A stretch of 64,000 nucleotides of DNA from Bacillus sp. MM2020_4 (GTDB taxonomy: Bacteria; Bacillota; Bacilli; Bacillales; Cytobacillaceae): the NCBI RefSeq assembly GCF_011250555.1, contig NZ_JAANMZ010000022.1:1-64000 (forward strand), written 5' to 3'. The position numbers and the translations under genes are program-made. The notes under the pieces were generated by a model. The model was given only the letters and a program-made list of their open reading frames with translations, made no database searches and was not told the origin of the DNA. Below, one piece after another: positions 12,548 to 41,407 of this stretch; position 1 is the stretch's first letter, and each line of letters opens with the position of its first letter.

Positions 12548-12561
12548 TATCAGCGCTTACA
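12548..12561 (+). promoter_or_regulatory. Candidate CcpA cre site
   Basis: TATCAGCGCTTACA fits the cre core (…A-N-CG-N-T-N-A-C-A) with two mismatches. It ends 8 bp before the -35 box of the symporter promoter, a place where CcpA could influence RNA polymerase. Catabolite control of a sugar-acid transporter would be expected. Confidence 0.5.
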
Positions 12562-12569
12562 AAAAGTTG

Positions 12570-12638
12570 TTGACGTATAAAATGATGGGTGATATTCTAA
12601 ATGTACAAATTAATTTGTAAGTTTAATAAACAAATTAA
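12570..12638 (+). promoter_or_regulatory. Sigma-A promoter and ROK operator site A (symporter)
   Basis: -35 TTGACG (12570-12575), 17 bp, -10 TATTCT (12593-12598). Operator at 12614-12638: perfect right half AAACAAATTAA, spacer AAT, degenerate left half TTTGTAAGTTT (7 of 11 match). A second palindrome ACAAATTAATTTGT (12605-12618) overlaps. The same half-site is found before uxaC and the larA-like gene. Confidence 0.75.
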
Positions 12639-12790
12639 TGGAATTTAAAACCAATCTCGAGTTGGAATGGAAATTTTTTAAACGTAAATGAAAAGGGTTT
12701 CATGTTTAGGAAAAAGAAAATCCAGATAAAAAAAGGCATATTTGTAAGAGATATCTCCCAAATACAGCTAATCAAATGGAGGGGTTAGAA

Positions 12791-14200
12791 ATGGGTCAAC
12801 CTGCTAAAAAATTAGATACGCCAGCAACAAATATCATTGGAAATGCTGTCCGTCCTTTTGGGATGAGGGATAAAATTGGTTATATGTTTGGTGACTGGGG
12901 CAATGACTTTTTCTTTATCTTAGCAGCATCGTTCCTCATGGTTTTCTATACGGATGTATATCATATAAGTCCAGCACTTGTAGGAACTCTCTTTTTAGTT
13001 GCCCGTTTGTGGGATGCTATTGCTGATGTAACAGTTGGACGTTTCATTGACTCAAGAAAGGCCGGGAAAAACGGCAAATTCAGACCATGGATTTTCAGAA
13101 TGTCTTTTCCCCTTGTAATAGTGGGTGTATTAATGTTCGTTCATATCCCAGGGATGTCTACTGGATTTTATGAAGCCTATGCATTTGTAACCTATCTTTT
13201 ATGGGGAACTTTATATAGCACTGTGAATATTCCATACGGTTCTATGGCGTCTGTGATGACCGCAGATCCAGTTGAACGAACAACCTTATCAACCTTCCGT
13301 TCACTTGGTGGAGCGTTAGCGGGATTAATTATAAACGTTGTTGGTCCATTAATCTTATTTGTAGATAATAAGGCTGATGCAAATCGTTTTATTCTCGGTG
13401 CCGTCATTTTCGGTGTTCTTTCTCTAGCATGTTATATGGCTTGTTATACATTAACAGTTGAACGAATTGTTGCTCCTAATTCTGAAACACCAAAAGGAAA
13501 CTTTGCCCAAACAGTAAAAGGCCTTGGAAAAAACAAACCATTAATTTGGATTTTAGTTGCTTCATTACTTTTCTTGGTATGTTTCATGCTCGTGGGTACA
13601 GTAAATGTTTACTTATTTAAAGATTATTTCAGCAACGCCAAGGCATTAAGTATGGTAGGTCTTATCCAGACAGTTGCGTTAATTATTGCTATGCCGATGG
13701 TTAAACCGTTAGTAGCTAAGTTTGGTAAAAAGGAATTAGCATCTGCAGGACTACTTCTCTCTATTGTTGTATACGCGCTATTATATTTCTTGCCTAACGT
13801 AACTGTAGGTCAATTTACCGGTGTTTTAGCTGTTGGAATGTTTGGATTCTCCTTCTTTAATCTAGTGATTTGGGCATTCGTAACAGATGTCATAGATTAT
13901 CATGAATACGTAACTGGATTGCGAGAAGATGGAACTGTATACTCTATCTATTCATTTGCTCGTAAAGTAGGTCAAGCTGTTGCTGGTGGTCTTGGTGGTT
14001 ATGCGATTGCAGCAGTTGGATATAATTCAGCAAGTCAGACACAAACACAAGAAGCACTGCATGGTATTCATTCACTGGCAACTTTAGTACCTGCCTTACT
14101 TCTTCTAGTTGTATTCTTAATCTTGGTATTCTTTTATCCATTAAATAAAAAACGTACTATTCAGCTTACAGCTGATTTAGCTGAAAGAAGAAAGGTATAA
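12791..14200 (+). CDS. GPH-family sugar/uronide:cation symporter (YjmB-like)
   Basis: 469 residues. The ATG at 12791 is used because GGAGGGG sits 6 nt before it. Twelve hydrophobic segments, with GDWGNDFFF near residue 35 and the RLWDAIADVTVGRFIDSRK loop typical of glycoside-pentoside-hexuronide symporters. B. subtilis has a homologous transporter (YjmB) next to uxaC, and here it shares an operator with uxaC. Uronate uptake (glucuronate, galacturonate or a uronide) is the likely job; the exact substrate cannot be read from sequence. Confidence 0.88.
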   Translation: MGQPAKKLDTPATNIIGNAVRPFGMRDKIGYMFGDWGNDFFFILAASFLMVFYTDVYHISPALVGTLFLVARLWDAIADVTVGRFIDSRKAGKNGKFRPWIFRMSFPLVIVGVLMFVHIPGMSTGFYEAYAFVTYLLWGTLYSTVNIPYGSMASVMTADPVERTTLSTFRSLGGALAGLIINVVGPLILFVDNKADANRFILGAVIFGVLSLACYMACYTLTVERIVAPNSETPKGNFAQTVKGLGKNKPLIWILVASLLFLVCFMLVGTVNVYLFKDYFSNAKALSMVGLIQTVALIIAMPMVKPLVAKFGKKELASAGLLLSIVVYALLYFLPNVTVGQFTGVLAVGMFGFSFFNLVIWAFVTDVIDYHEYVTGLREDGTVYSIYSFARKVGQAVAGGLGGYAIAAVGYNSASQTQTQEALHGIHSLATLVPALLLLVVFLILVFFYPLNKKRTIQLTADLAERRKV

Positions 14201-14231
14201 AACTAAATCACGGTATTTGTTATAGTCATCC

Positions 14232-14266
14232 CCGGTTACCCATATGAATGGTAATCGGTTTTTTTG
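14232..14266 (+). terminator. Terminator of the symporter gene
   Basis: Stem CCGGTTACC / GGTAATCGG (one G-T pair), 9-nt loop, then TTTTTTTG. Confidence 0.85.
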
Positions 14267-14303
14267 TATGAAAAGTGATATTTGAAACCGTTTAAGAAGT
14301 CCA

Positions 14304-14357: not shown

Positions 14358-15551
14358 TTATTTGTTTCCGCTTTCATTTTTCTCCCTTTGGTCATTGTAA
14401 GTAAAATTCAGCATTGGCACCTCAAGGAATTGTTTAATAGCAAGTGCGCATGCTCCAAGTCCACAGGATTTTTTTCCAATCGTAGAAATCAATAATTCAC
14501 GATAGTGGCTGATGGAAGAATGTAGGTTATTACGGATTTTCTCCAAAGAGTTCGGAACCATCTGCAGCAATTCACTATCCAATACAAGTACGTCTGGATT
14601 GTACATGTTAATCATATTATTTAATCCAATTGAAAGGTAATAAATGAATTGCTCCAGCAACTCGTGTACCTCTTCGTCACCTTCATCCAGCCATTGTTGA
14701 ATTTGTTCATAGGTTAGATTTTTAATCCCTCTTTTTTCAGAAAGATAATCAAAAATACTCGATTCTGAGGCATACTTTTCCCAGCATCCTTTGTTTCCAC
14801 AGTTGCAAGGTTTTCCACCTGGCATGATAATCATGTGACCTGCTTCACCCGCGTACCCGTCATGACCGCGAAAAAATTCGCTGTTCATCATCATCCCGAG
14901 ACCGATTCCAGAGTAGAGGGTAGCACATAAAAGATTATTCGTTCCATGGTGCACAAACACTCTCTCTGCGAACGCAGATAGATTTGCATTGTTTTCAAGA
15001 TATATATTGATACCCAGTACATTTTCTAAATCATTTTTCAAGTGTACATCATGCCAGTTAAACTTGGGTACATAATGCACAAGTTCGTCTGTCGAGACAA
15101 GGCCGTGAATAGCAATGACAATTCCAACAATCCCATAACGACTGTCAATACACTCAGATCTGTATTTTTGAATCTGCTCAAGTAAGAGATGCAGAATCTT
15201 ATAATAATCTGTAGTATCTATTCCAATAGTAGTAGAAGAAATAGGCTGACCTAAAAGATTGGAAAGGGTAAATGATAGTTGACCATAATCGAGGTCAATT
15301 CCAAGTGCATAGCCAGCTTGTCCATTTAAAGACAGCATGATTGGCTTCCGGCCGACATGATTATGCTCTAGTTGTGTTTCGACAATTAATCCTTCATCTA
15401 GTAAGTCTGCTACTTGTGCTGAAATCGTTGCTCGTGTTAGAGCAGTGACTTTTGATAAATCCGCCCTTGAAATCATTCCTTCTTTTACAATTTCTCTGAT
15501 GATTAAGGAGCGATTAATTTTTTTGATATAAGCCGCATCACCGGTAACCAT
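14358..15551 (-). CDS. ROK-family transcriptional repressor 1 (XylR-like)
   Basis: 397 residues. N-terminal winged helix (~10-75: RSLIIREIVKEGMISRADLSK, then LTRATISAQVADLLDEGLI) joined to a ROK sugar-kinase-like domain with IAIHGLV, LENNANLSAFAE and the zinc motif CNCGNKGCWE. GGAGG lies 7 nt before the ATG. It is divergent from uxaC; the palindrome at 15687 lies in between. It closely resembles ROK repressor 2 at 32617 along the whole length. Likely effector: a uronate or its breakdown product (inferred). Confidence 0.92.
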   Translation of the reverse strand: MVTGDAAYIKKINRSLIIREIVKEGMISRADLSKVTALTRATISAQVADLLDEGLIVETQLEHNHVGRKPIMLSLNGQAGYALGIDLDYGQLSFTLSNLLGQPISSTTIGIDTTDYYKILHLLLEQIQKYRSECIDSRYGIVGIVIAIHGLVSTDELVHYVPKFNWHDVHLKNDLENVLGINIYLENNANLSAFAERVFVHHGTNNLLCATLYSGIGLGMMMNSEFFRGHDGYAGEAGHMIIMPGGKPCNCGNKGCWEKYASESSIFDYLSEKRGIKNLTYEQIQQWLDEGDEEVHELLEQFIYYLSIGLNNMINMYNPDVLVLDSELLQMVPNSLEKIRNNLHSSISHYRELLISTIGKKSCGLGACALAIKQFLEVPMLNFTYNDQREKNESGNK

Positions 15552-15647: not shown

Positions 15648-15711
15648 TTGACGAAACAAACTAAACATGATAATGTAGAAATATAGTTAATTTGTTTATT
15701 AAACAAATTAA
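15648..15711 (+). promoter_or_regulatory. uxaC promoter and ROK operator site B
   Basis: -35 TTGACG (15648-15653), 17 bp, -10 TAATGT (15671-15676). A perfect 25-bp palindrome fills 15687-15711: half-sites TTAATTTGTTT and AAACAAATTAA around ATT, placed at or just after the expected +1. Repressor binding would block initiation or clearance. Confidence 0.85.
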
Positions 15712-17350: not shown

Positions 17351-18766
17351 ATGTCAAAACAACAAATTGGTGTAGTTGGCCTAGCGGTAATGGGGAAAAA
17401 CCTCGCTTTGAATATTGAAAGCCGCGGCTATTCGGTTGCCGTTTTTAACCGTTCATATGATAAAACTGAAGCGTTTCTGAAAAATGAAGCGGAGGGTAAA
17501 AACTTTGTCGGTGCTCGTACCGTTGAGGAATTTGTTCATTCGTTAGAAAAACCACGTAAAATCTTATTGATGGTTAAAGCTGGTAATGCAACAGATGGAA
17601 CGATTGATTCATTAAAACCATTCCTTGAAGAAGGCGATATCCTCATTGATGGCGGTAATACCTTTTTCCAAGATACAATTAGACGTAATAAAGAACTTGC
17701 AAATGCAGGGTTCCATTTTATCGGAACGGGTGTTTCCGGCGGTGAAGAAGGGGCATTAAAAGGTCCTTCCATTATGCCTGGCGGTAATAAAGAAGCCTAT
17801 GATTTAGTAAAGCCAATCCTAGAGGCGATTTCAGCTAAGGTTGAAGGGGACCCATGCTGTACATATATTGGACCAAACGGTGCAGGTCATTATGTGAAAA
17901 TGGTTCATAATGGAATTGAATATGGTGATATGCAATTAATTTGTGAAGCATACTTTATTCTGAAGAATGTCCTTGGTTTAAGCACTGAAGAGCTTCATGA
18001 TGTGTTTGCAGAATGGAATAAAGGCGAGCTTGACAGCTACTTAATTGAAATTACCGCAGATATTTTTACAAAAGTGGATGAAGAAACAGGTAAACCTTTG
18101 GTGGACGTGATTCTAGATACTGCTGGTCAAAAAGGAACTGGTAAATGGACAAGCCAAAACGCTTTAGATTTAGGTGTCCCGCTTCCCATCATCACAGAAT
18201 CAGTTTTTGCCCGTTTTATCTCAGCAATGAAAGAAGAACGTGTGAAGGCTAGTCAAGTTTTAAATGGTCCAGCTGTAAAACCATTTGAAGGAAATAAAGA
18301 AGAATTAATTGAAGCAGTTCGTAAAGCACTATATATGAGCAAAATTGTGTCATATGCACAAGGCTTTGCCCAAATGCGTGTGGCATCTGAAGAATACGAT
18401 TGGAATCTTCAATACGGAAATATCGCGATGATTTTCCGCGGCGGCTGCATTATTCGTGCTCAATTCTTACAAAAAATTAAAGATGCGTACGACCGTGATT
18501 CTCAGTTAGCAAATCTATTATTAGATCCATACTTTAAAGAAATTGTTGAAGGGTATCAACCGGCACTTCGTCAAGTGCTTTCAGTAGCTATTGAACGTGG
18601 TATCCCAGTGCCATCATTCGCAAGTGCTATCGCATATTATGACAGTTATCGTACGGAAACACTTCCTGCAAACCTATTGCAAGCACAGCGTGATTACTTT
18701 GGTGCCCATACGTATCAACGTGTGGATAAAGAAGGAATATTCCATACAAATTGGATGCAAAAATAA
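17351..18766 (+). CDS. gnd: 6-phosphogluconate dehydrogenase (decarboxylating)
   Basis: 471 residues. N-terminal Rossmann motif [18 protein letters not shown], the [19 protein letters not shown] loop, catalytic K/N in [17 protein letters not shown], and the all-helical C-terminal domain ending in [13 protein letters not shown] with a HTNW tail. It oxidises 6-phosphogluconate to ribulose 5-phosphate + CO2. The NR(S)-type residues after strand 2 ([10 protein letters not shown]) agree with NADP preference. Placement downstream of uxaC under the ROK operator suggests a catabolic role in sugar-acid breakdown in addition to, or instead of, housekeeping. Confidence 0.95.
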
Positions 18767-18964: not shown

Positions 18965-18982
18965 TAGAAAGGTATGGGTGCT

Positions 18983-19915
18983 ATGGATTTGGAAGCAGCT
19001 ATAAATCATCAAAGTATGATGAATAAATGGATCACTGCAGCTTACAGAGTTAAAGGTGTGCATTCCTATTCCTTTCAGTATCATTCCCATCATGAATATG
19101 AAATTTATTTCTTTTGTGGTGGTGATTGTAAGTATTTAATTAGTAATCGGATTTATGAACTAGAGCCTGGTGATATCATTCTATTGGATGGCATGACACT
19201 GCATAAACCGAATCCGAAAATAGAAAGTACCTATACAAGAAGTATGCTTCATTTTTCACCCACATGGATGGCAGAAATAGCAGCAGTTCTAGGGATTCCT
19301 AATTTGTTGGATCCATTTAAGAAGCTCAATAATTATCTACTACGAACGGGCTACAATGAATCTGGCCAATATATTGACCAACAGATAAAGAAAATCGTTG
19401 GACTTTTGGCCCGGATGAATGAAGAAATGCTCCAGACAGGCACAAATAATAGGCTGTTAGAGGCCGAAATAAAGCTTGAATTAGTTCAATTACTCGTAAA
19501 AATATATAAAATGAGTCAAGAAGAATTAGCACATGTTTCGAATAAAAAAACAGAAAAAGAGGTCCATGCCGAGGCAATTGCCTCATGGATAAAAGACCAT
19601 TTTGCTGAAAAAATGAATTTGGATCGGATTTCGACTGAACTAAATTTAAGTAAATATTATACTTCACATGTTTTTAAAGAGATTACTGGTTTTACTGTGA
19701 TGGAATATGTGATGGGCTGCAGGCTTAATCAGGTCAAGTTTTTATTAGAAATGGAGCCTGACCTCACTCTTGCTGAAGTATCAAGTGCAGCTGGATTTGA
19801 AAGTCTTGCCCATTTCAGCCGTTATTTTAAGGAAAAGGTAGGGGTTACGCCCTCTCGTTACCGCAAAAATAAACGAATAGCCGATACATCGGGAACAAAG
19901 GAGGATTCGCTATAA
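18983..19915 (+). CDS. AraC-family regulator with cupin sensor domain
   Basis: 310 residues from the second ATG, which has AAAGG 10 nt upstream; an ATG 9 nt earlier is too close to it. Residues ~20-110 form an AraC_binding cupin (HSHHEYEIYFFCGGDCKYLI, LEPGDIILLDGMTLHKP). The last ~100 residues hold two helix-turn-helix units (MNLDRISTELNLSKYYTSHVFKE and LAEVSSAAGFESLAHFSRYFK). It heads a tight operon of sugar dehydrogenase and isomerase-like genes (1-70 nt gaps) and probably activates it in response to a sugar. Confidence 0.9.
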   Translation: MDLEAAINHQSMMNKWITAAYRVKGVHSYSFQYHSHHEYEIYFFCGGDCKYLISNRIYELEPGDIILLDGMTLHKPNPKIESTYTRSMLHFSPTWMAEIAAVLGIPNLLDPFKKLNNYLLRTGYNESGQYIDQQIKKIVGLLARMNEEMLQTGTNNRLLEAEIKLELVQLLVKIYKMSQEELAHVSNKKTEKEVHAEAIASWIKDHFAEKMNLDRISTELNLSKYYTSHVFKEITGFTVMEYVMGCRLNQVKFLLEMEPDLTLAEVSSAAGFESLAHFSRYFKEKVGVTPSRYRKNKRIADTSGTKEDSL

Positions 19916-20803
19916 ATGAATCAGGATTTATGGATTTCCGGCTTTTCAGATGAAATCTCGTCTGATTTTGAGACACAACTTGAGGTTGTTTCAAACCTTG
20001 GCATGCGTTATCTCTCATTACGGGGCATTGATGGGAAAAACATCGGCGACTTTACAGTTGAAGAAATAAAAGAAAATGTACAGCCAAGGTTGCAAAAATA
20101 TGGTATTCAAGTTTCTTCAATCGGTTCACCGATTGGGAAAGTATTTATCAATGATGAAGAAGGATTTGCAAAGCAAAAGCTGATGTTGGACACGCTTTGC
20201 CAAATTAGCAATTTGCTTGATTGCCAATATATACGAATCTTCAGCTTCTATATTCCTAAAGGTGAGGATGCAGATCAATATCGTAGTGAAGTGGTAGGTA
20301 AGCTTAAGGAATACGCTGCCATTGCAGCAAAGTACAATGTGATATTGCTGCATGAAAATGAAAAGGATATTTTTGGTGATATCGCGAGACGCTGTCATGA
20401 GATTTTAACGGAAGTAGGATCTCCTTATTTTAAAGGGATTTTTGACTTTGCTAATTTCGTACAGTGCGGAGAAGATACACAGGAGTGTTACGACCTCTTA
20501 AGAGATGAGATTGTTTATATACACATTAAGGATGCTGTAACAGCGGATAGCCAAAATGTTGTCTGTGGAACTGGCGAAGGAAAAATACCAGAATTGTTAG
20601 CCCAGTTTATGAAGAGCGGCTATAAGGGATTTTTAACGCTTGAGCCACATCTTGTCCTCTTTGATTCTTTAAAGGACTTAGAGCTAGAAGATGCATCCGA
20701 AATTATTAAGGACAACAAAGGGCTAGACGGTGCCGGCGGTTACAAGCTTCAATATGAAGCCTTATTAGACATTCTTAACAAAATTGAAAGCGAGGGAAAT
20801 TAA
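19916..20803 (+). CDS. TIM-barrel sugar isomerase/epimerase-like protein (AP endonuclease 2 fold), copy 1
   Basis: 295 residues, starting right after the AraC stop with GGAGGA 10 nt upstream. The xylose-isomerase-like barrel shows metal-ligand type residues in LLHENEKDIFGD (E), GIFDFANF (D), YIHIKDA (H) and FLTLEPHL (E). Members act as epimerases, isomerases, dehydratases or 3-keto-glycoside lyases on sugars and inositols. Adjacent Gfo/Idh dehydrogenases favour action on an oxidised (keto) sugar. Substrate not identifiable. Confidence 0.82.
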   Translation: MNQDLWISGFSDEISSDFETQLEVVSNLGMRYLSLRGIDGKNIGDFTVEEIKENVQPRLQKYGIQVSSIGSPIGKVFINDEEGFAKQKLMLDTLCQISNLLDCQYIRIFSFYIPKGEDADQYRSEVVGKLKEYAAIAAKYNVILLHENEKDIFGDIARRCHEILTEVGSPYFKGIFDFANFVQCGEDTQECYDLLRDEIVYIHIKDAVTADSQNVVCGTGEGKIPELLAQFMKSGYKGFLTLEPHLVLFDSLKDLELEDASEIIKDNKGLDGAGGYKLQYEALLDILNKIESEGN

Positions 20804-20805
20804 TT

Positions 20806-21966
20806 ATGGCAGATGTAAGATTAGGGATTATTGGATTAGGTGCAGAAGGTGGTATGTACGCTAATTTTATCGCTGAAGGTAAAGTGCAAAACATGGTGAT
20901 TGGTGCAATCTGTGATAATGATCCTGCTAAAAAACAGGTTGCAGAAGAAAAGTATCCTGGTGTTCCTTTCTACGATAATTATATCGATATGCTTGAAAGT
21001 GGTGACGTAGATGCGGTCGTTACAACTGTTCCACATTACCTCCATCCAGAAATGGGAATTGAAGCATTAAAACGTAACCTTCATGCGTTAGTGGAAAAAC
21101 CAGCTGGTGTTTATACAAAACAAGTGAAAGAGTTAAACGATTTTGCAGCAGCAAAGCCTGAACTTAAGTTTGCCATCTTCTTTAACCAACGGACAAATCC
21201 GCTTTATAAAAAAGTAAAAGAACTTATTGATAATGGTGAAATTGGCAACATTCGTAGCACCAACTGGATTATTACTACTTGGTGGAGACCTCAAGGGTAC
21301 TACAATCAAAGTGAATGGAGAGCAACTTGGGGCGGGGAAGGCGGCGGTGTCCTTGTAAACCAAGCACCACACCAAATTGACTTGCTTCAATGGATTTGCG
21401 GTATGCCGAAAAAGGTTTATGCAAAATTAAACTTTGGCTATCAAAGAGATATTGTGGTTGAAGACGATGTAACTGCCGTTTTTGATTATGGAAATGGTGC
21501 TACTGGTGTATTTGTAACTAAGACACACGATGTAGTAGGGACAGACCGTTTAGAAATCCATGGCGATAAAGGAAAAATCGTGGTTGATGATAGTAAGAAA
21601 ATTACGATCAAACGGCTAAATAAGCCTGAAGATGAAATGAGCGCAACCATGAGCATGCAAGATGTTATGAGTATTTTCATGGGTGGCGGTCAAGGTGATA
21701 TTTTCACTGAGGAAGTAATTGAATTTGAAAGTGTTTGGGGCGGTCAGCACATTGCTGTATTAGAAGACTTCGCTTCCGCGATTGTAAATGGTACACCATT
21801 ACTAGCTCCAGGAAGCGACGGTATTAATGGTGTTAGACTTGCAAATGCCATGCACCTGTCAAGCTGGTTAGGAAAAGAAATTGATGTACCATTTGATGAA
21901 GATTTGTTCCTAGAAGAATTAAATAAAAGAATTGCTGAAGAAGGTAAATATCCGGTTAGAAAGTAA
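20806..21966 (+). CDS. Gfo/Idh/MocA-family oxidoreductase, copy 1
   Basis: 386 residues. Rossmann motif GIIGLGAEGGMYA, EKPAG (catalytic Lys), and GGGVLVNQAPHQIDLLQW (catalytic Asp/His region of the C-terminal sheet domain). It is an NAD(P)-dependent sugar or polyol dehydrogenase; WWRPQGYYNQSEWRATWGGEGGG is shared with YcjS/YteT-type members. Only 2 nt separate it from the upstream isomerase-like gene. An intercistronic stem-loop follows. Confidence 0.88.
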   Translation: MADVRLGIIGLGAEGGMYANFIAEGKVQNMVIGAICDNDPAKKQVAEEKYPGVPFYDNYIDMLESGDVDAVVTTVPHYLHPEMGIEALKRNLHALVEKPAGVYTKQVKELNDFAAAKPELKFAIFFNQRTNPLYKKVKELIDNGEIGNIRSTNWIITTWWRPQGYYNQSEWRATWGGEGGGVLVNQAPHQIDLLQWICGMPKKVYAKLNFGYQRDIVVEDDVTAVFDYGNGATGVFVTKTHDVVGTDRLEIHGDKGKIVVDDSKKITIKRLNKPEDEMSATMSMQDVMSIFMGGGQGDIFTEEVIEFESVWGGQHIAVLEDFASAIVNGTPLLAPGSDGINGVRLANAMHLSSWLGKEIDVPFDEDLFLEELNKRIAEEGKYPVRK

Positions 21967-21975
21967 TCACCACAC

Positions 21976-22014
21976 GAAACGAACTCATTGCTGCTCAAGC
22001 TTTGAGTTCGTTTC
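21976..22014 (+). other. Intercistronic stem-loop next to the ribosome binding site of the following gene
   Basis: Perfect 12-bp inverted repeat GAAACGAACTCA / TGAGTTCGTTTC with a 15-nt loop between the two dehydrogenase genes. No T-run follows; instead AAAAAGGGG, the ribosome binding site of the next gene, starts at once. It is more likely an mRNA-stability or translation element than a terminator. Confidence 0.6.
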
Positions 22015-22031
22015 AAAAAGGGGAAATGCTT

Positions 22032-23036
22032 ATGCTAAAAGTAGCGTTAATTGGGCTAGGGGATATATCTAACATACATCTGCCGGCGATAAAAGCAAAT
22101 CCGAATGTGGAATTGACCGCGGTTTGTGATATAGATGAAGGTGCTAGAAAAATTGCCCCTGAAGCACGCTTTTATACCGATTATCAAGAAATGTTGGAAT
22201 CAGAAGCATTAGATGTTGTTCATATCTGCCTGCCACATTATCTGCACAATCCAGTGACAAAGGCATGTGTCGAAAAAGGTGTTCACGTATTTCTTGAAAA
22301 GCCGCTTGGCCTGAATACAGAAGAAGCGCTTGAGCTAGTAGAGCTTGAGCAAAAACATCCGGATATTAAAATTTGTGTTTGTTTTCAAAACAGATACAAT
22401 GAGTCGTTTGAAATGCTTCAAGAGATCGCTGAGAGCGGTGAGTATGGCAGGATCGTGGGGATTAAGGGGCTTGTTGCATGGTATCGCCCTAAATCCTATT
22501 ATGATCTTAAGCCATGGCGCGCACAAATGAAATATGCCGGCGGCGGCGTAATGATCAATCAGGCGCTTCATACGATGGATTTGATGCAATTACTTGGAGG
22601 GAAAATGGAGTCAATCCGCGGAAATGTGGATCAGCTTCTAGATTACGGAATTGAGGTAGAGGATACAGCAACAGCACGTATTCAATTTGCAAACGGTGCC
22701 ACAGGTTTATTTTTTGCTACGAATGCAAATGCCGTGAATTCCAGTGTAGAACTTCAAGTCATTTTTGAAAAAGGGAAATTTACGATTAAAGATAGTATTT
22801 TAACTAGAGTACATGAAGACGGAAAGAAGGAAGAACTAGTAGAGGATGCCAAGCTTCCTGGAACTAAATTTTATTATGGGGCAAGCCATGCAAAATTAAT
22901 TCACTTATTCCATCAATGTATTGAAGAAGATACTAACAACTATGTTCTTGCCAAAGATGCACTTGTGGCGATTCAAATGATTGATGCTATTCGCAAGTCT
23001 TCAGAATTAAAACAAACAGTCAAAATGGAGGGATAA
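22032..23036 (+). CDS. Gfo/Idh/MocA-family oxidoreductase, copy 2
   Basis: 334 residues from the ATG at 22032 (AAGGGG 8 nt upstream); the frame is open further upstream through the stem-loop but that is not coding. Motifs GLGDISNIHLPAI, LEKPLGLN and GGGVMINQALHTMDLM mark the family. It is clearly related to copy 1 but shorter, so the two may catalyse successive or opposite oxidation steps on one sugar. It is followed after 3 nt by the second TIM-barrel gene. Confidence 0.88.
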   Translation: MLKVALIGLGDISNIHLPAIKANPNVELTAVCDIDEGARKIAPEARFYTDYQEMLESEALDVVHICLPHYLHNPVTKACVEKGVHVFLEKPLGLNTEEALELVELEQKHPDIKICVCFQNRYNESFEMLQEIAESGEYGRIVGIKGLVAWYRPKSYYDLKPWRAQMKYAGGGVMINQALHTMDLMQLLGGKMESIRGNVDQLLDYGIEVEDTATARIQFANGATGLFFATNANAVNSSVELQVIFEKGKFTIKDSILTRVHEDGKKEELVEDAKLPGTKFYYGASHAKLIHLFHQCIEEDTNNYVLAKDALVAIQMIDAIRKSSELKQTVKMEG

Positions 23037-23039
23037 ACA

Positions 23040-23900: not shown

Positions 23901-23913
23901 TAGGTAATAGGGG

Positions 23914-23943
23914 AAAGCAGCTGTGTGTGCAGCTGCTTTTTCT
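23914..23943 (+). terminator. Terminator of the AraC/dehydrogenase operon
   Basis: 10-bp stem AAAGCAGCTG / CAGCTGCTTT, 6-nt loop TGTGTG, then T-rich sequence. Confidence 0.9.
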
Positions 23944-23969
23944 CATTTGAAGAAAACAAAAATGCAAAA

Positions 23970-24114
23970 CTCCAAGAATCCCGGAAGAAATGCCCGATAG
24001 AAGGGTTCTAAAGGACAAAACTCCAAGAACCCCGGAAGAAATGTCCGATAGAAGGGTTCTAAAGGACAATATTCCAAGAATCCCGGAAGAAATGTCCGAT
24101 AGAAGTACCTTTCA
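23970..24114. repeat. 51-bp tandem repeat, nearly three copies
   Basis: Copies start at 23970, 24021 and 24072 with a few base differences; the third is cut after GTCCGATAGAAG. Each unit carries CCAAGAAYCCCGGAAGAAATG and the inverted pair AGAACCC / GGGTTCT, so each can fold into a hairpin. The unit length of 17 codons keeps frames open, which creates a false minus-strand ORF. It lies between a terminator and the NERD pseudogene. Confidence 0.9.
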
Positions 24115-24140
24115 AATACTGATATAGGAAAGTACCACTT

Positions 24141-25051: not shown

Positions 25052-25303
25052 ATGCCACATCCTTTCTTCAAGTCCATTTTATTAAATAAGATAGGTGATT
25101 TTGGCCTCTCTAAGTGAAAGTTTTGTTAAATTTTATTAAAAAATAACAACATGATAGCAAAAAATATATTTCAGGATTTTACAAAATGTCAAAATATTTT
25201 CGAATGGGTAAAAAAAATCTATATGAATATTTTGAAAATTTACTTACAATTATTAATATAGTCATTGAACAAATGAAAAATACAGACCAATGGGGGAGGA
25301 ACG

Positions 25304-25975: not shown

Positions 25976-25989
25976 GAGAGGTGAGGGAT

Positions 25990-26937: not shown

Positions 26938-26966
26938 GTTGACGAAATGAACAAGGAGGGACATCC

Positions 26967-27800: not shown

Positions 27801-27854
27801 TTTCAGATTCACAGCATCAAAAAAATAAATACTAACTAATAGGGGGTAGGGAAA

Positions 27855-33821: not shown

Positions 33822-33888
33822 TTGACGAAAAGGTTAGCATAATGATATTATACAGTTAATTAATTTGTTTGGTAAACAAATTAATTAA
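33822..33888 (+). promoter_or_regulatory. Promoter and ROK operator site C (LarA-like operon)
   Basis: -35 TTGACG (33822-33827), 18 bp, -10 TATTAT (33846-33851). A perfect 15-3-15 inverted repeat fills 33856-33888: half-sites TTAATTAATTTGTTT and AAACAAATTAATTAA around GGT. The inner 11-mers equal those of site B before uxaC. A 136-nt leader without obvious structure follows before the GTG start. Confidence 0.85.
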
Positions 33889-35311: not shown

Positions 35312-36082
35312 ATGACAAATTTATTTGATCTAACAGGAAAGACGGCGGTAGCAATCGGGGGAAATGGTGTATTAGGCTCTGCCATGGCAAAAGGATTGGC
35401 AGACCACGGAGCTAAAGTAGCGATTGTTGGTCGTAATTTGGAAAAGGCAGAAGAAATTGTTAAACAAATAGTCAATAACGGTGGAGAAGCAAAGGCGTTT
35501 TCAGCAGATGTTAGTTCTAAAGATTCCTTGGTTCAGGTTGCGAATGAAATCGAACAATGGTCTGGTGGCTGGGATATTCTCCTGAATGCACCTGGAACAA
35601 ATAGTGCGACACCTTTCTTTGAACTTGATATGGATGAATATGATAAAATAATGGATATCAACTTAAAAGGGATTGTCCTAACCTGTCAAATTTTCGCGAA
35701 AAGAATGATTGAGCAGGATCGTAAAGGCAGTATCATTAACATTTCATCTGTTTCATCGACAACACCGCTTTCAAGAGTATTTACGTATTCTGTTTCGAAA
35801 GCAGGTCTTAACAGTGTAACACAGTTCTTAGCACGTGAATTTGCACCTAATGGAATTCGTGTGAATGCGATTATTCCAGGATTTTTCCCGGCAGAACAAA
35901 ATCGGAAAATATTAGACAAAGAACGAATCGAATCGATCATGAGCCATACCCCGATGAATCGCTTTGGTGAAGCAGAAGAATTACAAGGTGCTACTGTTTG
36001 GCTCGCTTCAGAAAAGGCATCAAGCTTTGTCACTGGTGCAATGATTCGTGTCGATGGCGGATTCGGCTGTATGACAATCTAA
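35312..36082 (+). CDS. Short-chain dehydrogenase, UxuB/YjmF-like (fructuronate reductase candidate)
   Basis: 256 residues, AGAGGAGAG ribosome binding site, 18 nt after the LarA-like gene. Classical SDR: cofactor loop GGNGVLGSAMA, NAPG, catalytic S145/S146, Y159 and K163 (YSVSK). B. subtilis uses an SDR of this type (YjmF/UxuB) for D-fructuronate/D-mannonate interconversion in its uxaC locus, and this protein has the same GxLGSAMA start and FFPAEQN loop. Gluconate 5-dehydrogenase-like SDRs are close relatives, so substrate needs testing. Confidence 0.8.
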   Translation: MTNLFDLTGKTAVAIGGNGVLGSAMAKGLADHGAKVAIVGRNLEKAEEIVKQIVNNGGEAKAFSADVSSKDSLVQVANEIEQWSGGWDILLNAPGTNSATPFFELDMDEYDKIMDINLKGIVLTCQIFAKRMIEQDRKGSIINISSVSSTTPLSRVFTYSVSKAGLNSVTQFLAREFAPNGIRVNAIIPGFFPAEQNRKILDKERIESIMSHTPMNRFGEAEELQGATVWLASEKASSFVTGAMIRVDGGFGCMTI

Positions 36083-36158: not shown

Positions 36159-36959
36159 ATGCTAACTGAGAAATATAAAAAATTACAGTCTATTCTCCGT
36201 GAAATGGAATCGGTAGTTGTTGCGTTTTCAGGAGGAGTGGATAGTACGTTTTTACTTAAAGCGGCATTTGACACATTAGGTGCGGATCACGTTCTAGCCG
36301 TAACTGCGGACTCTGAAAGCTATCCCTCAAGTGAGCTTAAAGAAGCAATGGAGCTTGCCGAAAAAATGGGTGTCAGGCACCAAGTGATTGAAACTTCTGA
36401 ACTGGCCATCCCAGGCTATGCTGAGAATAATAAAAATCGATGCTACTTTTGTAAAAGCAGTTTATTCGATCATTTAATTCCAGTCATGGAAGAAATGGGT
36501 TTTCAAAATGTCATATATGGTGTCATTGCTGATGATATGAATGAATTTCGTCCAGGCATGCAGGCTGCTAAAGAAAAGGGGATACGCGGTCCGCTGCAGG
36601 AGGCTGATTTATTTAAGGAAGAAATTAGAGAGCTGTCACGGAATTTTGATTTGCCAACATGGGATAAACCATCACTTGCCTGTCTTTCATCTAGAATTGC
36701 CTATGGGGAGTTTATTACCCAAGAAAAGCTGTCAAAGGTTGAAAGGGCAGAAGATTATTTAAAAAGACTCCATATTCGCCAAGTTCGTGTAAGGACACAC
36801 GAGGACATTGCCCGGATTGAAGTTGAACCAAGTGATATGAGTACCATTTTAGAAAATCATGATTCGATTGTAAAAACGCTGCAAGAGTATGGATATAAAT
36901 ATATTACTTTAGATTTAATAGGATATCAGAGCGGCAGTATGAACAAGGTTCTATCTTAA
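36159..36959 (+). CDS. larE: LarE, ATP-dependent sulfur transferase for the nickel-pincer cofactor
   Basis: 266 residues. PP-loop SGGVDST (24-30) for adenylylation. C175 in DKPSLACLSSRIAYGE corresponds to the sacrificial sulfur-donor cysteine of Lactobacillus LarE (C176). C95 and C98 in RCYFCKSSL give a three-cysteine set with C175, as in LarE forms thought to hold an iron-sulfur cluster and act catalytically. It thiolates pyridinium-biscarboxylate mononucleotide. A strong terminator follows, so this ends the first lar transcription unit. Confidence 0.93.
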   Translation: MLTEKYKKLQSILREMESVVVAFSGGVDSTFLLKAAFDTLGADHVLAVTADSESYPSSELKEAMELAEKMGVRHQVIETSELAIPGYAENNKNRCYFCKSSLFDHLIPVMEEMGFQNVIYGVIADDMNEFRPGMQAAKEKGIRGPLQEADLFKEEIRELSRNFDLPTWDKPSLACLSSRIAYGEFITQEKLSKVERAEDYLKRLHIRQVRVRTHEDIARIEVEPSDMSTILENHDSIVKTLQEYGYKYITLDLIGYQSGSMNKVLS

Positions 36960-37084: not shown

Positions 37085-38560
37085 ATGCCAAGAGAGTTTG
37101 TAATTGGACTTGATGTCGGAACAACAAGCGTTAAAGCCTGTGTGTTTAACTTACACGGTAAATTAATGGCTGATGTTGAAAAAGTAATTACATCAAATTA
37201 CCCCCAGCAAGGATGGGTAGAGCAAAATCCGGATGAAATTGAACAATCTGCAATCCTAGCAATTAGAGAAGTCATTGAAAAAGCGGCAATTGAGAAAAAT
37301 GAATTGGTTTCTCTTGGTTTTTCTGCTGCGATGCATTCGCTTATTTGTATCAATGGGGAGGGCAAACCGATATCTCCAGCACTTATTTGGGCCGATGGAA
37401 GAAGTTATAAACAGGCTGATGAGGTAATTAATACAATTGGAAATAAGGTTTACGCTAAAACAGGAACACCGATTCACCCCATGACACCCTTTGTAAAATT
37501 ATTATGGATGAAAGAGAATGACTATAAACCATACAAAGAAGCAAAATTTTTCATGTCAATTAAAGAGTACTTACTCCTTTGCTGGTTTGGCGAGAGAGTA
37601 ATTGATTATTCAATGGCATCCGCAACAGGGTTATTCAACCCCACAACCCATAAATGGGAGCAAGAACTATTAGACCTTACGGGTATTTCGGAAGATCAGC
37701 TATCTGAAATTGTTCCACCGACAAAAATAGTGATGGGAATCAACCGAGATAAAGCAGAAGAAATGGGGATTCACCCCGACATGCCTGTAGTTGTTGGAGC
37801 GGCAGATGGACAATTAGCCAACCTGGGAAATGGTGCAATTCTTCCTGGTGAAGTAGCGGTTTCAGTTGGAACAAGCGGGGCTATTAGGCAAGTGACAAAA
37901 GGTGTTAAGATTAGTGAAAGTCGTGAAACGTTTTGTTATTCCTTTACAGAGGATTCTTCCATCATAGGCGGACCGACGAATAATGGAGGAATTGCTATTC
38001 AATGGTTAAAGGAACTATTGAACGATCAAAGAAGCTTTGCTGAATTTCTTTCTGATGCGGAACAGATTCCTCCAGGTGCAGATGGTATGCTTTTTCTTCC
38101 TTATTTAAATGGTGAAAGAGCACCAATTTGGAACCAACGGGCAAAAGGGAATTTTTACGGAGTAACAATCACACATAAAAAGGAACATTTTATTCGTGCC
38201 GTACTTGAAGGAATCACCTTTAATCTCTATCAAATTGGAAAAACCTTGGAACGCTTAGCCGGTGAGCCGCAAAAAGTTTATGTAAACGGTGGTTTAGCCA
38301 GATCTCCATTGTGGCTCCAAATGATGGCTGATATATTTGAGGCGGAAATTTATGTTTCGGAAAGCCATCATAGTGCAGCATGGGGTGCTGCATGGACCGC
38401 GTTAGTGGCAATCCGTAAAGTTGATTCCTTTGAAGAAATTAAAAGAAATATTCCGATGGGAAAAGCCACACTTCCAATTAAAGAAAATAGTGAACAATAT
38501 AAGAAGTTCTATGAGAATTATGAAATGTTAGCAAATGATATGGTAAAGTATTTTAGGTGA
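37085..38560 (+). CDS. gntK: Gluconokinase, FGGY family
   Basis: 491 residues. FGGY kinase with ATP motif GLDVGTTSVKAC, and segments that match B. subtilis GntK: FSAAMHSLI, TGTPIHPMTPFVKLLW, SIKEYLL, VIDYSMASATGLFN, GTSGAIR, GGPTNNGGI and VNGGLARSPLW. It makes 6-phosphogluconate from gluconate. AAAAGGAAG precedes the ATG. No gntP permease or gntR is adjacent; instead lar genes follow, which argues that gluconate arises inside the cell from the LarA-like step. Confidence 0.9.
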   Translation: MPREFVIGLDVGTTSVKACVFNLHGKLMADVEKVITSNYPQQGWVEQNPDEIEQSAILAIREVIEKAAIEKNELVSLGFSAAMHSLICINGEGKPISPALIWADGRSYKQADEVINTIGNKVYAKTGTPIHPMTPFVKLLWMKENDYKPYKEAKFFMSIKEYLLLCWFGERVIDYSMASATGLFNPTTHKWEQELLDLTGISEDQLSEIVPPTKIVMGINRDKAEEMGIHPDMPVVVGAADGQLANLGNGAILPGEVAVSVGTSGAIRQVTKGVKISESRETFCYSFTEDSSIIGGPTNNGGIAIQWLKELLNDQRSFAEFLSDAEQIPPGADGMLFLPYLNGERAPIWNQRAKGNFYGVTITHKKEHFIRAVLEGITFNLYQIGKTLERLAGEPQKVYVNGGLARSPLWLQMMADIFEAEIYVSESHHSAAWGAAWTALVAIRKVDSFEEIKRNIPMGKATLPIKENSEQYKKFYENYEMLANDMVKYFR

Positions 38561-38577
38561 GAATAGGGGGGATAGGC

Positions 38578-39324
38578 ATGCTTGAGGATGTGTTGAAGCA
38601 AGTTCAAGATGGAACCCTTAGTATTACAGCCGCCAAGGAACAATTAGCTACCTTTGAAAATTTGGGTTTTGCGAAAGTCGACCACCATCGAAAAAAACGC
38701 CAGGGCTTTGCAGAGGTCGTTTATGGGGAAGGAAAGACAGCGGAACAAATTATTTCAATTATCTTGACTTTAAGGGCGCGGAATAATGAAATTCTTGTAA
38801 CAAGGGTTGCAATGGAGAAGGCTGAATTAATCCGGAATGAGCTTCCTGAAATGATCTATAATGAGATTGCAAGGATTCTTTTTTGGAAAAATGAAACGAA
38901 TACTGAGAGAAGACCGGAAGGATACATTGCCATCGTAGCAGCAGGAACTTCTGATTTACGGGTTGCAGAAGAAGCGGCAATTACAGCTGAGGTGCTCGGG
39001 AGCAAGGTACGCCGCTTTTATGATGTCGGTGTTGCCGGCATTCATCGCCTCTTGTTTCATGCCGAAGAAATTCAAAAGGCGACAGTCTCCGTTGTTGTTG
39101 CTGGAATGGAAGGGGCTCTCCCAAGTGTAGTGGGCGGACTTGTTTCTCACCCTGTCATTGCTGTCCCGACAAGCATTGGGTATGGAGCGAGTTTTAACGG
39201 CCTATCGGCCTTGCTTACGATGTTAAATTCATGTGCTTCAGGAATTAGTGTAGTAAATATTGATAATGGGTTTGGCGGCGGATATAACGCTGTATTAATA
39301 CATCAGCTGGCACAAAAGGGGTAG
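38578..39324 (+). CDS. larB: LarB, NaAD carboxylase/hydrolase for the nickel-pincer cofactor
   Basis: 248 residues from ATG 38578 with AGGGGGG 6 nt upstream; an in-frame GTG 21 nt earlier overlaps the gntK stop. The C-terminal half is PurE-like (AAGTSDLRVAEEAAITAEVLG, VVVAGMEGALPSVVGGLVSHPVIAVPTSIGYG). LarB makes pyridinium-3,5-biscarboxylic acid mononucleotide from nicotinic acid adenine dinucleotide. It lies 4 nt from larC1. Confidence 0.94.
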   Translation: MLEDVLKQVQDGTLSITAAKEQLATFENLGFAKVDHHRKKRQGFAEVVYGEGKTAEQIISIILTLRARNNEILVTRVAMEKAELIRNELPEMIYNEIARILFWKNETNTERRPEGYIAIVAAGTSDLRVAEEAAITAEVLGSKVRRFYDVGVAGIHRLLFHAEEIQKATVSVVVAGMEGALPSVVGGLVSHPVIAVPTSIGYGASFNGLSALLTMLNSCASGISVVNIDNGFGGGYNAVLIHQLAQKG

Positions 39325-39328
39325 GGAA

Positions 39329-40183
39329 ATGAAGACACTTTATTTTGATTGTTTTTCGGGAATCAGCGGCGATATGGTCATCGGGGCACTTATCGATGCT
39401 GGAGCTGATCCAAATCTATTAGCAGAGGAATTAAAAAAGCTTCAAATTGAAAATGAATATGAGCTGCAATGGAAAAAAATCATTAAAAATGGTATTAGCA
39501 GCACAAAGTTTGATGTTGTACTGCTAAACAATTCGAATAATCAAAACAACAATCATGAGCACACCGAAGACCATAGTCATAGTCACGAACACGAGCACCA
39601 CCACGATCATAGTCATATCCACGAACACCACCATCATCATAGCCATGATCATGACCATCACCACCAGCATGACCATCGTGCCTATAAAGAGATTGTGGAA
39701 TTAATTGAGGGGGCTGGTTTTTCTGACTCTGTAAAGGAAACCTCCTTAAAAATTTTTAATAAAATTGGTGAAGCAGAAGGGTTGATCCACGGAATACCCT
39801 TGGAAAATGTCCATTTCCACGAAGTAGGAGCCGTTGATTCGATTATTGATATTATCGGTGCGGCGATCTTAATCGACCAATTGGAAATAGACATCATCAA
39901 GTCATCACCTATTCCTGTTGGCACAGGAAGAATTCATATTGACCACGGAGTTTATCCGGTACCGGCTCCCGCGACACTCGAAATTTTAAAAGGAGTGCCG
40001 CTTGACCAATCGGATATCAGAGCGGAGCTTACAACACCAACGGGAGCGGCGATTGTCGCCGTACTTGCTGAGGAATATTGTTCGATTCCTTCATTGAAAG
40101 TTAGGTCAATCGGGTATGGTGCGGGAACAAAAACCTTTAAAAACCACCCAAATGTACTCCGAGTTATTATTGGTGAGCAATAG
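39329..40183 (+). CDS. larC1: LarC N-terminal part (LarC1), nickel insertion, with His-rich insert
   Basis: 284 residues. Starts with LYFDCFSGISGDMVIGALIDAG, the LarC signature. Residues 76-116 contain 24 histidines in 41 positions, a metal-storage type insert. Then ENVHFHEVGAVDSIIDI and TPTGAAIVAVLAEEY motifs. The frame ends in RVIIGEQ, where single-chain LarC would continue; the C-terminal domain is encoded in another frame just downstream. With LarC2 it inserts nickel into the pincer cofactor (CTP-dependent in the family). Confidence 0.92.
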   Translation: MKTLYFDCFSGISGDMVIGALIDAGADPNLLAEELKKLQIENEYELQWKKIIKNGISSTKFDVVLLNNSNNQNNNHEHTEDHSHSHEHEHHHDHSHIHEHHHHHSHDHDHHHQHDHRAYKEIVELIEGAGFSDSVKETSLKIFNKIGEAEGLIHGIPLENVHFHEVGAVDSIIDIIGAAILIDQLEIDIIKSSPIPVGTGRIHIDHGVYPVPAPATLEILKGVPLDQSDIRAELTTPTGAAIVAVLAEEYCSIPSLKVRSIGYGAGTKTFKNHPNVLRVIIGEQ

Positions 40184-40235
40184 AGAGAAAACAAGCTACG
40201 TAAAAAAGTCATCCAACTTGAAAGGGGGTAACCAA

Positions 40236-40715
40236 ATGGCCTCACTTCCTCCCAATCATGAACATTACGATCATCAAATGGTCAAAATGGAAGTGAATCT
40301 TGATGATATACCAGGAGAATGGCTTGGCTATGTGATGGACTTATTATTCGAGGCCGGAGCAAATGATGTGTTCTATACGCCCATTTATATGAAAAAAAAT
40401 AGACCAGGCGTATTACTGCAGTTACTTTGTTCACAAGAAAATAGTAATAGAATGAAGGAGATTCTTTTTAAGGAAACAACCACGTTAGGTCTACGCTATT
40501 ATCCGTTAACCGTACATAGATTAGAAAGAATGTTTACAAAGGTTACTACGGAGTGGGGGAGCGTGACGGTAAAAGAGGGAATATTTGAAGGACAAGTCGT
40601 ACAAAGAGCTCCCGAGTATGAGGAATGTAAACATATTGCGCAGCTTAATAATATTCCTTTAAAACAAGTCTATGAGCAGGTTTGGAAAGTAATAGGGGAA
40701 AAAGATAGACTTTAA
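40236..40715 (+). CDS. larC2: LarC C-terminal part (LarC2)
   Basis: 159 residues from ATG 40236, which has AAAGGGGG about 6 nt upstream; the open frame itself reaches back to 40116, overlapping larC1 in the +1 frame. Motifs EVNLDDIPGEWLGYVMDLLFEAGANDVF, MKKNRPGVLL and ETTTLGLR are those of the LarC C-terminal domain. Lactobacillus LarC is made from two frames by ribosomal frameshifting; here a separate start looks strong enough for independent translation, though a +1 shift near the larC1 stop cannot be excluded. Confidence 0.88.
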   Translation: MASLPPNHEHYDHQMVKMEVNLDDIPGEWLGYVMDLLFEAGANDVFYTPIYMKKNRPGVLLQLLCSQENSNRMKEILFKETTTLGLRYYPLTVHRLERMFTKVTTEWGSVTVKEGIFEGQVVQRAPEYEECKHIAQLNNIPLKQVYEQVWKVIGEKDRL

Positions 40716-40765
40716 GATTTTCTTTTTCTTCATTATTATAATAGAGGAGAGGAAGAAGGTTAGTT

Positions 40766-41407
40766 ATGAGTTTTATCTCTGTATTATTTTTAGGTTTTGT
40801 TTTAGGAATAAAGCATTCCATCGAACCGGATCATATTATTGCCGTTTCCACCATGGTTGGTAAGAGCAATAAGCTGTCTCGTTCTACTTTAACGGGTGTA
40901 TTCTGGGGAATCGGGCATACTAGTACTCTTTTTATTGTCGGGATGATATTGGTTTTGATGAAAGGTGAGTTATCAGAGAAATGGGCCATGTCACTCGAAT
41001 TTTTAGTGGGCATTATGTTAGTGTATTTAGGTATAAAAAGTATGCTATTTTTTAATAACTTTCAAAGGAATTCCGATAACCATGCTCGCTCATCATTCAT
41101 AAAAATTACCTTTATTGGGTTTATTCATGGATTGGCAGGGAGTGCAGCGATGGTTATTTTAACTATGTCAACTGCGTCGTCTGTCTGGGAGTGTGCCTTA
41201 TATATTTTGATATTTGGTGCAGGAACGATTATTGGGATGCTCATGTTTACAACGATCATTGGAATTCCGTTTGTTTATAGTAAAAAAAGCGTGGGTCTTA
41301 ATCGTCGTTTGACCCAATTTGCCGGGACGGTAAGTTTTCTATTTGGGATCTACTATATGTATAACTTGGGTATTACAGAAGGACTATTTCAGATGTGGGT
41401 ACAGTAG
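40766..41407 (+). CDS. Nickel permease, NiCoT/UreH-like
   Basis: 213 residues, six membrane segments, GAGGAGAGG before the ATG. H17-x4-D22-H23 (KHSIEPDHI) is the HX4DH nickel-binding signature in the first helix; GHTSTL and FIHGLAGSAAM are later conserved motifs. It imports Ni2+ and directly follows the LarC genes, so it most likely feeds cofactor synthesis for the LarA-like enzyme. No urease or hydrogenase genes are present in the window. Confidence 0.88.
   Translation: MSFISVLFLGFVLGIKHSIEPDHIIAVSTMVGKSNKLSRSTLTGVFWGIGHTSTLFIVGMILVLMKGELSEKWAMSLEFLVGIMLVYLGIKSMLFFNNFQRNSDNHARSSFIKITFIGFIHGLAGSAAMVILTMSTASSVWECALYILIFGAGTIIGMLMFTTIIGIPFVYSKKSVGLNRRLTQFAGTVSFLFGIYYMYNLGITEGLFQMWVQ

What the first reader, a model, noticed from the sequence alone, without database searches (positions are those of the whole stretch)
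12548..41407. Candidate nickel-dependent glucuronate-to-gluconate pathway (UxaC, SDR, LarA-like epimerase, GntK, Gnd)
Seen: uronate-type symporter, uxaC and gnd at 12.8-18.8 kb; LarA-like protein, UxuB-like SDR, larE, gntK, larB, larC1/C2 and a nickel permease at 34-41.4 kb; all three leading promoters share an operator. Known: UxaC makes fructuronate, UxuB-type SDRs reduce it to mannonate, GntK and Gnd turn gluconate into ribulose 5-phosphate, and the LarA superfamily includes sugar-acid 2-epimerases, including, as I recall, activity on D-gluconate. Inferred: the LarA-like enzyme inverts C2 of mannonate to give gluconate, closing a chain with one NADH spent, one NAD(P)H gained and one ATP used. 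No uxuA, kdgK or kdgA is present in the window.
Basis: partly seen in the sequence, partly recalled or inferred. Interest (0 to 1): 0.92.

Follow-up and report, generated by a model that had tools for sequence, protein, structure and literature searches.

The report
Nickel-enzyme shortcut for glucuronate breakdown
Some soil Bacillus-type bacteria appear to digest the sugar acid glucuronate by a side route in which a nickel-cofactor enzyme flips one carbon so that the product can enter the pentose phosphate pathway; the idea was known from Thermotoga, but here it seems to be run by a different, untested branch of the enzyme family.

Summary
The LarA-like protein is not a GntE (known D-gluconate 2-epimerase) but NCBIfam "NPN isomerase group 22", for which I found no reported activity. 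In 59 fetched group-22 loci, one clade (18, plus the window) sits with a fructuronate-reductase-like SDR (17/18), a gluconokinase-like FGGY kinase (16/18), uxaC (10/18) and gnd (10/18), against 0/41 for each in the rest. uxaC is present in 19/19 genomes with this clade, against 64/280 others. The window's genome has no uxuA match and no ManD over cut-off; its one KDPG-type aldolase lies in a galactonate operon. Yet 9/19 clade genomes keep uxuA. Two loci carry uxaC-gnd-larA-SDR-kinase in one row. The uxaC and larA promoters hold the genome's only two perfect copies of one operator. The predicted fold is LarA's. Best reading: glucuronate > fructuronate > mannonate > gluconate > 6-phosphogluconate > ribulose 5-phosphate. 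The idea is published for Thermotoga. New are a different LarA branch as the epimerase, its spread in Bacillaceae and Paenibacillaceae, and a context-based split of group 22 into hexonate, hexarate and tetronate clades. No activity is shown; the order of epimerase, reductase and kinase is unproven.

The parts
12610..12638 (.). variant operator-like palindrome before the symporter gene
   Evidence: arms TTAATTTGT/ACAAATTAA with an 11-base spacer
12776..14200 (+). GPH-family (glycoside-pentoside-hexuronide) cation symporter
   Evidence: TIGR00792 361 bits over cut-off
14358..15551 (-). ROK-family repressor 1, divergent from uxaC
   Evidence: NagC/Mlc-like ROK, below equivalog cut-offs
15687..15711 (.). 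operator TTAATTTGTTTATTAAACAAATTAA
   Evidence: one of two perfect sites in the genome
15806..17209 (+). uxaC, glucuronate/hexuronate isomerase (ORF listed from 15692)
   Evidence: NF002794 633 bits, match from residue 39
17351..18766 (+). gnd, NADP-dependent 6-phosphogluconate dehydrogenase; the only match over cut-off in this genome
32617..33774 (-). ROK-family repressor 2, divergent from the larA-like gene
33860..33884 (.). operator TTAATTTGTTTGGTAAACAAATTAA
34025..35293 (+). LarA-superfamily protein, NPN isomerase group 22; predicted sugar-acid C2-epimerase
35312..36082 (+). SDR, fructuronate reductase (UxuB)-like, own clade beside UxuA-linked UxuB
36159..36959 (+). larE, NPN cofactor sulfur transferase
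   Evidence: TIGR00268 369 bits
37085..38560 (+). FGGY kinase, gluconokinase-like subfamily
   Evidence: TIGR01314 465 bits, below the 649 cut-off
38557..39324 (+). larB
   Evidence: NF033503 307 bits
39329..40183 (+). larC1
   Evidence: TIGR00299 216 bits
40116..40715 (+). larC2, overlapping larC1 in another frame
   Evidence: NF052512 151 bits, PF01969 167 bits
40766..41407 (+). NicO/DsbD-like membrane protein, possible nickel carrier
   Evidence: weak

Best explanation
The two gene clusters form one uronate regulon under ROK repressors. Glucuronate is imported and isomerised by UxaC to fructuronate; the SDR reduces it to D-mannonate; the group-22 LarA homolog, carrying the nickel-pincer nucleotide made by LarB/C/E, inverts C2 to give D-gluconate; the FGGY kinase phosphorylates gluconate; Gnd decarboxylates 6-phosphogluconate to ribulose 5-phosphate. 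In this genome it stands in for UxuA, KdgK and KdgA. Shown by computation: gene identities, co-occurrence, absence of known mannonate dehydratases over cut-off, shared operator, LarA fold and conserved histidines. Inferred: the substrates of the epimerase and kinase, and the order of steps.
Against: No activity measured. uxuA is also over cut-off in 9/19 and 24/49 clade genomes (one, G251, with a stop inside; and L108's own genome G312 has it), so the route is often not a replacement. The LarA profile alignment is weak (6 LarA rows; local probability 69%); D72 has no counterpart in it, and the K184 and K298 equivalents are uncertain. The GntE loop signature is absent. The kinase is below the gluconokinase cut-off, and five of 19 clade genomes also hold a canonical gntK over cut-off. 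The Paenibacillus cellulositrophicus plasmid cluster has no kinase in the annotated stretch. gnd is this genome's only one over cut-off, so its place may be housekeeping. Genomes are related by descent; the Fisher tests ignore that. Four of the 44 hold ManD-like proteins of 370-412 bits, below the 550 cut-off, three of them without uxuA.
Confidence: 0.65

Rival explanations
1. Kinase first: the FGGY kinase phosphorylates mannonate and the LarA homolog epimerises 6-phosphomannonate to 6-phosphogluconate, as activities found in Lactobacillus suebicus extracts.
For: PMC6978723 shows both activities in extracts, gene of the epimerase unknown (passages). The clade's kinases form a band at 409-500 bits, below canonical GntK, and five clade genomes carry both kinds.
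Against: The LarA epimerases described in the passages read act on free hydroxy acids (PMC7583248, PMC11770544). larA and SDR are the most constant neighbours, which fits epimerase and reductase as consecutive steps.
Confidence: 0.12
2. Epimerase first: the LarA homolog inverts C2 of fructuronate (5-keto-D-mannonate) to 5-keto-D-gluconate, and the SDR reduces that to gluconate.
For: Stereochemistry allows it (own reasoning). The LarA-linked SDRs are a clade of their own beside UxuB, and gluconate 5-dehydrogenase is the second-best NCBIfam match (214 bits, below its 279).
Against: D-mannonate oxidoreductase is the best match and the only one over its cut-off among the 25 of 232 shown. In G246 the SDR of the cluster joins the UxuA-linked UxuB clade, though that cluster has stops in larA and uxaC.
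Confidence: 0.1
3. The LarA homolog acts on another sugar acid (for example an aldarate or an oligosaccharide-derived aldonate) that only shares the regulon with uronate genes.
For: The sister clade sits with hexarate genes; Gfo/Idh and TIM-barrel genes lie between the two clusters in the window and some relatives.
Against: Gfo1 is found in 24 of 80 named loci at 40% identity or more (stretches are limited to about 10 kb each side), while the SDR is next to larA in 75; in L108 and L138 larA is between gnd and the SDR.
Confidence: 0.08
4. Ordinary canonical glucuronate catabolism is encoded elsewhere in the genome, by enzymes not of the UxuA or ManD families, and this locus is accessory.
For: The genome is in 150 contigs; kdgK was not searched; many clade genomes do keep uxuA.
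Against: In this genome uxuA has no match and ManD none over cut-off; the only eda-type aldolase is in a galactonate operon; the genome is rated 100% complete.
Confidence: 0.05

Closest known systems
Thermotoga maritima UxaR regulon with gnd-uxaE-uxaD-gntE-gntK, and GntE2 (Rodionova et al. 2012, known to me through other papers; Desguin et al. 2020)
   Same: Uronate to mannonate, epimerised to gluconate by a LarA homolog, then GntK and Gnd; GntE2 assayed on mannonate (PMC7583248; PMC3750489, passages).
   Different: There the epimerase is GntE2 (group 20), the regulator is GntR-type, and a kdgA-kdgK-uxuB-uxuA operon is also present. Here it is group 22, with ROK repressors and no uxuA.
Lactobacillus suebicus galacturonate pathway (PMC6978723, passages)
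   Same: Links mannonate to 6-phosphogluconate; redox-neutral route to ribulose 5-phosphate.
   Different: Phosphorylation precedes epimerisation, and the epimerase gene is unknown; the terms 'LarA' and 'racemase' do not occur in its main text.
Canonical UxaC-UxuB-UxuA-KdgK-KdgA pathway (established knowledge)
   Same: First two steps, UxaC and an UxuB-type reductase.
   Different: No UxuA; mannonate is not dehydrated.
LarAH10 of Megasphaera elsdenii (PMC11770544, passages)
   Same: A LarA homolog outside the GntE branch with D-gluconate/D-mannonate epimerase activity, called possibly convergent by its authors.
   Different: Hydrophobic 2-hydroxyacid racemase branch with low turnover; no uronate cluster is mentioned in the passages read.
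LarA-like enzymes with a single catalytic histidine (PMC12611868, passages; PDB 9q3j, 9q3k)
   Same: LarA fold; authors propose a role in carbohydrate metabolism.
   Different: The second catalytic histidine is an asparagine there; here both histidines are kept.

Membership tests
LarA (NPN-dependent racemase/epimerase) superfamily | LarA fold | tested here: met
LarA (NPN-dependent racemase/epimerase) superfamily | two catalytic histidines (LarA H108, H174) and nickel-ligand H200 | tested here: met
   H93, H158 and H187 align in a profile alignment with 6 LarA rows (local probability 69%) and are invariant in 18+15+15 rows of the three clades
LarA (NPN-dependent racemase/epimerase) superfamily | R75, K184, K298 and D72 | tested here: inconclusive
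   R61 aligns with R75; D72 has no counterpart; K184 falls at a gap (K171 invariant close by); K298 region reads GMDPNITGR without a clear lysine
LarA (NPN-dependent racemase/epimerase) superfamily | NPN biosynthesis genes (larB, larC, larE) in the genome | tested here: met
   in the same cluster; at least one NPN gene in the fetched stretch of 16/18 clade loci and 71/80 named loci
NPN isomerase group 22 (NF052515) | score over the curated cut-off of 400 bits | tested here: met
   558 bits
GntE (D-gluconate 2-epimerase, LarA groups 18-20) | E-V/S loop after the second catalytic histidine | tested here: not met
   T159-A160 invariant in the clade; signature from PMC7583248; rests on the alignment
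GntE (D-gluconate 2-epimerase, LarA groups 18-20) | D-mannonate/D-gluconate epimerase activity | not testable with these tools
   needs an assay
Thermotoga-type uronate-to-gluconate pathway | uxaC, fructuronate reductase, LarA homolog, gluconokinase and gnd linked by position or operator | tested here: met
   kinase below the gluconokinase cut-off
Canonical UxuA pathway | mannonate dehydratase UxuA or ManD in the genome | tested here: not met
   window genome without UxuA match; ManD not over cut-off (best pieces 139 and 136 bits, which lie in the galactonate dehydratase gene)

The most novel reading that the evidence does not exclude
Group 22 is a second family of nickel sugar-acid C2-epimerases, separate from GntE and divided by clade into three substrate classes: hexonates (mannonate/gluconate, the window's clade, replacing UxuA-KdgK-KdgA in about half of the Bacillaceae and Paenibacillaceae that carry it), hexarates (with GucD, IlvD-like and galactarate-dehydratase-like genes) and tetronates (threonate/erythronate, with D-threonate kinase and PdxA).
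Probability: 0.5. Interest if true: 0.72.

Novelty: new variant of a known kind. Interest (0 to 1): 0.6.

Why it matters
It gives a testable substrate to a LarA group for which I found no reported activity, would make nickel a requirement for growth on glucuronate in a number of soil Bacilli, and offers a redox-neutral glucuronate-to-pentose route with a complete, portable gene set. The same analysis predicts substrates for two sister clades.

Tried and rejected
Sequence search of the PDB with the window protein found nothing at E up to 1. A profile of 50 group-22 rows gave mainly chance hits to repeat and other unrelated proteins; two LarA-like entries appeared only at E 0.68 and 1.4. The fold comparison settled it.

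'Simple replacement of uxuA' was rejected as too strong: 9/19 and 24/49 clade genomes keep uxuA.

'Group 22 as a whole is a uronate enzyme' was rejected: 41 of 59 fetched loci have no UxaC, SDR, FGGY or Gnd above the identity floors (weaker SDR, Gnd and FGGY hits, 23-35%, occur in some), and only 4/28 genomes with other group-22 members alone have uxaC. Ten rows of the tree fall in none of the three context clades and their contexts were not worked out.

G246 (L066) was not leaned on: its larA and uxaC frames hold stops. It was left out of the protein alignments and the LarA tree (17 other fetched clade loci plus the window were used) but kept in the counts of 18.

The named loci and the G genomes overlap: matching contig lengths for at least seven (L128, L136, L145, L148, L163, L168, L173), so the two sets are not independent; G180 and G347 look like the same genome, so 44 handles are at most 43 genomes. 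The automatic group labels put L072, L073 and L091 under 'hexarate' on a weak GucD match (35-37%); L072 and L073 lie among the tetronate rows.

In one search four of the ten LarA loci gave no usable frame, so six were used. In one search one of 20 uxuA loci (L200) gave no SDR.

Literature: paper searches showed no paper joining a group-22 LarA to uronate; 'group 22' does not occur in the main text of PMC7583248 or PMC11770544. Papers were seen as listings or passages only, none read whole. The library holds openly licensed papers only, and supplementary tables could not be read, so Table S1 of PMC7583248 (genomic contexts per group) was not seen.
Full report
What is there. The window lies in a 4.9 Mb, 150-contig genome rated 100% complete. 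The closest named relative of its LarA homolog is from Neobacillus soli (93% identity). Between them lie an AraC regulator, two xylose-isomerase-like TIM-barrel proteins, two Gfo/Idh oxidoreductases, an ABC sugar transporter and a two-component system.

Context across genomes. In 299 genomes of the order, 51 match group 22 and 47 are over cut-off. I fetched all 59 over-cut-off places outside the window and compared their neighbours with the window's proteins. One clade, 69-83% identical to the window protein and monophyletic with 100/100 support (L066, too short, was not in the tree), has the SDR directly downstream in 17/18 loci, the FGGY kinase in 16/18, UxaC in 10/18 and Gnd in 10/18 within the stretch. 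The other 41 have none above the identity floors. Genome-wide, uxaC is over cut-off in 19/19 genomes with this clade, 4/28 genomes with only other group-22 members and 64/280 of all genomes without the clade. Of 80 named relatives (best 80 of 561 found, itself a capped list), 75 have the SDR adjacent, 64 the kinase, 46 UxaC and 44 Gnd; all four lie in one stretch in 23. L108 (Mesobacillus campisalis) and L138 (Bacillus sp. FJAT-27251) have uxaC-gnd-larA-SDR-kinase in a row. The genome of L138 has no uxuA match; that of L108 has one.

What is missing. UxuA has no match in 10/19 clade genomes, the window's included, and is not over cut-off in 25/49 named genomes, three of which have weak matches (50 of 80 loci were submitted, 49 held). 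The alternative dehydratase ManD is over cut-off in 0/44 handles (the 19 plus the 25), though 43 have lesser enolase-family matches and four carry 370-412-bit relatives (G315, G337, G306, G164; only G164 has uxuA). KDPG-type aldolase is absent in G150, G269 and G246 of 23 genomes searched. In the window's genome the one copy sits beside a galactonate dehydratase (719 bits), so it more likely serves galactonate. Nine of 19 and 24 of 49 do keep uxuA, so the two routes coexist in many strains.

Regulation. The uxaC and larA promoters carry near-identical 25-base palindromes, the only two perfect matches in the genome. The same palindrome, allowing 2 mismatches, precedes larA in 5/18 and 40/80 clade loci and uxaC in 5/10 and 34/46, against 0/41 for other group-22 loci (the 18 and the 80 overlap in part). 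It resembles the operator of the ROK repressor XylR (recalled). ROK genes stand divergent to both clusters in the window.

Order of steps. The LarA-linked SDRs (23 rows, support 95/94) form a clade beside the SDRs that neighbour uxuA (19 rows), which in canonical operons make mannonate. In G246 the cluster's SDR joins that UxuA-linked clade (100/99), although this genome has no uxuA match; the cluster is damaged, so this is a hint only. The window kinase and its relatives score 409-500 bits with gluconokinase, under the 649 cut-off. Mannonate phosphorylation first, as in L. suebicus (PMC6978723, passages), therefore stays open, as does C2 inversion of fructuronate before reduction.

Other clades of group 22. 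Clade B (15 loci) sits with an IlvD-like dehydratase (14/15), the alpha-ketoglutaric semialdehyde dehydrogenase GucD (11/15) and a galactarate-dehydratase-like protein (12/15). Clade C (15 tree rows) sits with PdxA (15/15) and D-threonate kinase (14/15) (names come from two loci, L054 and L070, and similarity of 35% or more to them). Both clades often carry DctM-like transporter genes. Ten further rows lie in neither clade and were not assigned. The three assigned clades all lie among polyhydroxy-acid genes, which supports a sugar-acid C2-epimerase role.

Compared with what is known. Epimerisation of mannonate to gluconate followed by GntK and Gnd was proposed for Thermotoga by Rodionova et al. 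2012 (known to me through PMC6978723, PMC7583248 and PMC3750489, passages only). GntE2 was shown to act on mannonate in vitro (PMC7583248, passages), and LarAH10 and LarAH15 also do (PMC11770544, passages). PMC7583248 notes that group 19 (GntE1) has a uronate-linked context. I found no report of activity for group 22 in the searches listed under Tried and rejected. The finding is a new variant: same proposed chemistry, different LarA branch, different regulator, and a broad set of Bacillaceae and Paenibacillaceae hosts.

Energetics (established biochemistry plus inference). One reducing equivalent is spent by the SDR and one NADPH regained by Gnd, with one ATP used. If the SDR takes NADPH the route is redox-neutral; its cofactor was not tested.

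Noticed in passing
L035-L093 (41 of 59 loci): Two other group-22 clades sit with hexarate genes (IlvD-like, GucD, galactarate-dehydratase-like) or tetronate genes (D-threonate kinase, PdxA), predicting aldarate and threonate/erythronate epimerases; ten tree rows remain unassigned.
   Followed up: partly
window 18974-29204: AraC regulator, two TIM-barrel isomerase-like and two Gfo/Idh genes plus an ABC sugar transporter lie between the two clusters; Gfo1 recurs in 24 of 80 named loci. Possibly an oxidoreductive (3-keto) cleavage of a glucuronide.
   Followed up: no
window 39329-40715: larC1 and larC2 overlap by 68 bases in different frames, consistent with expression of LarC by frameshifting (recalled for Lactobacillus).
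   Followed up: no
G000:C66 17363-18757: This gnd is the genome's only match over the 6-phosphogluconate dehydrogenase cut-off, so the housekeeping gene may lie inside the uronate regulon.
   Followed up: partly
L066 (G246): larA-like and uxaC frames contain stop codons; the pathway may be decaying in this genome.
   Followed up: no
L185 8001-10827: On a Sporomusa termitida plasmid a group-22-like larA homolog (49% identity) is followed by two UxaA-family hydrolases and preceded by tripartite tricarboxylate transporter genes and a mandelate-racemase-family gene.
   Followed up: no
window 43216-44349: A 377-aa protein matches only the first part of 2',3'-cyclic-nucleotide phosphodiesterase models.
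   Followed up: no
window 24141-24698: 185-aa ORF on the minus strand with no Pfam or NCBIfam match at the thresholds used.
   Followed up: no
L184 and L186: The cluster (without the kinase) lies on a large plasmid in Paenibacillus cellulositrophicus, annotated 'lactate racemase domain-containing protein', and a larA homolog lies on a Niallia taxi megaplasmid.
   Followed up: partly
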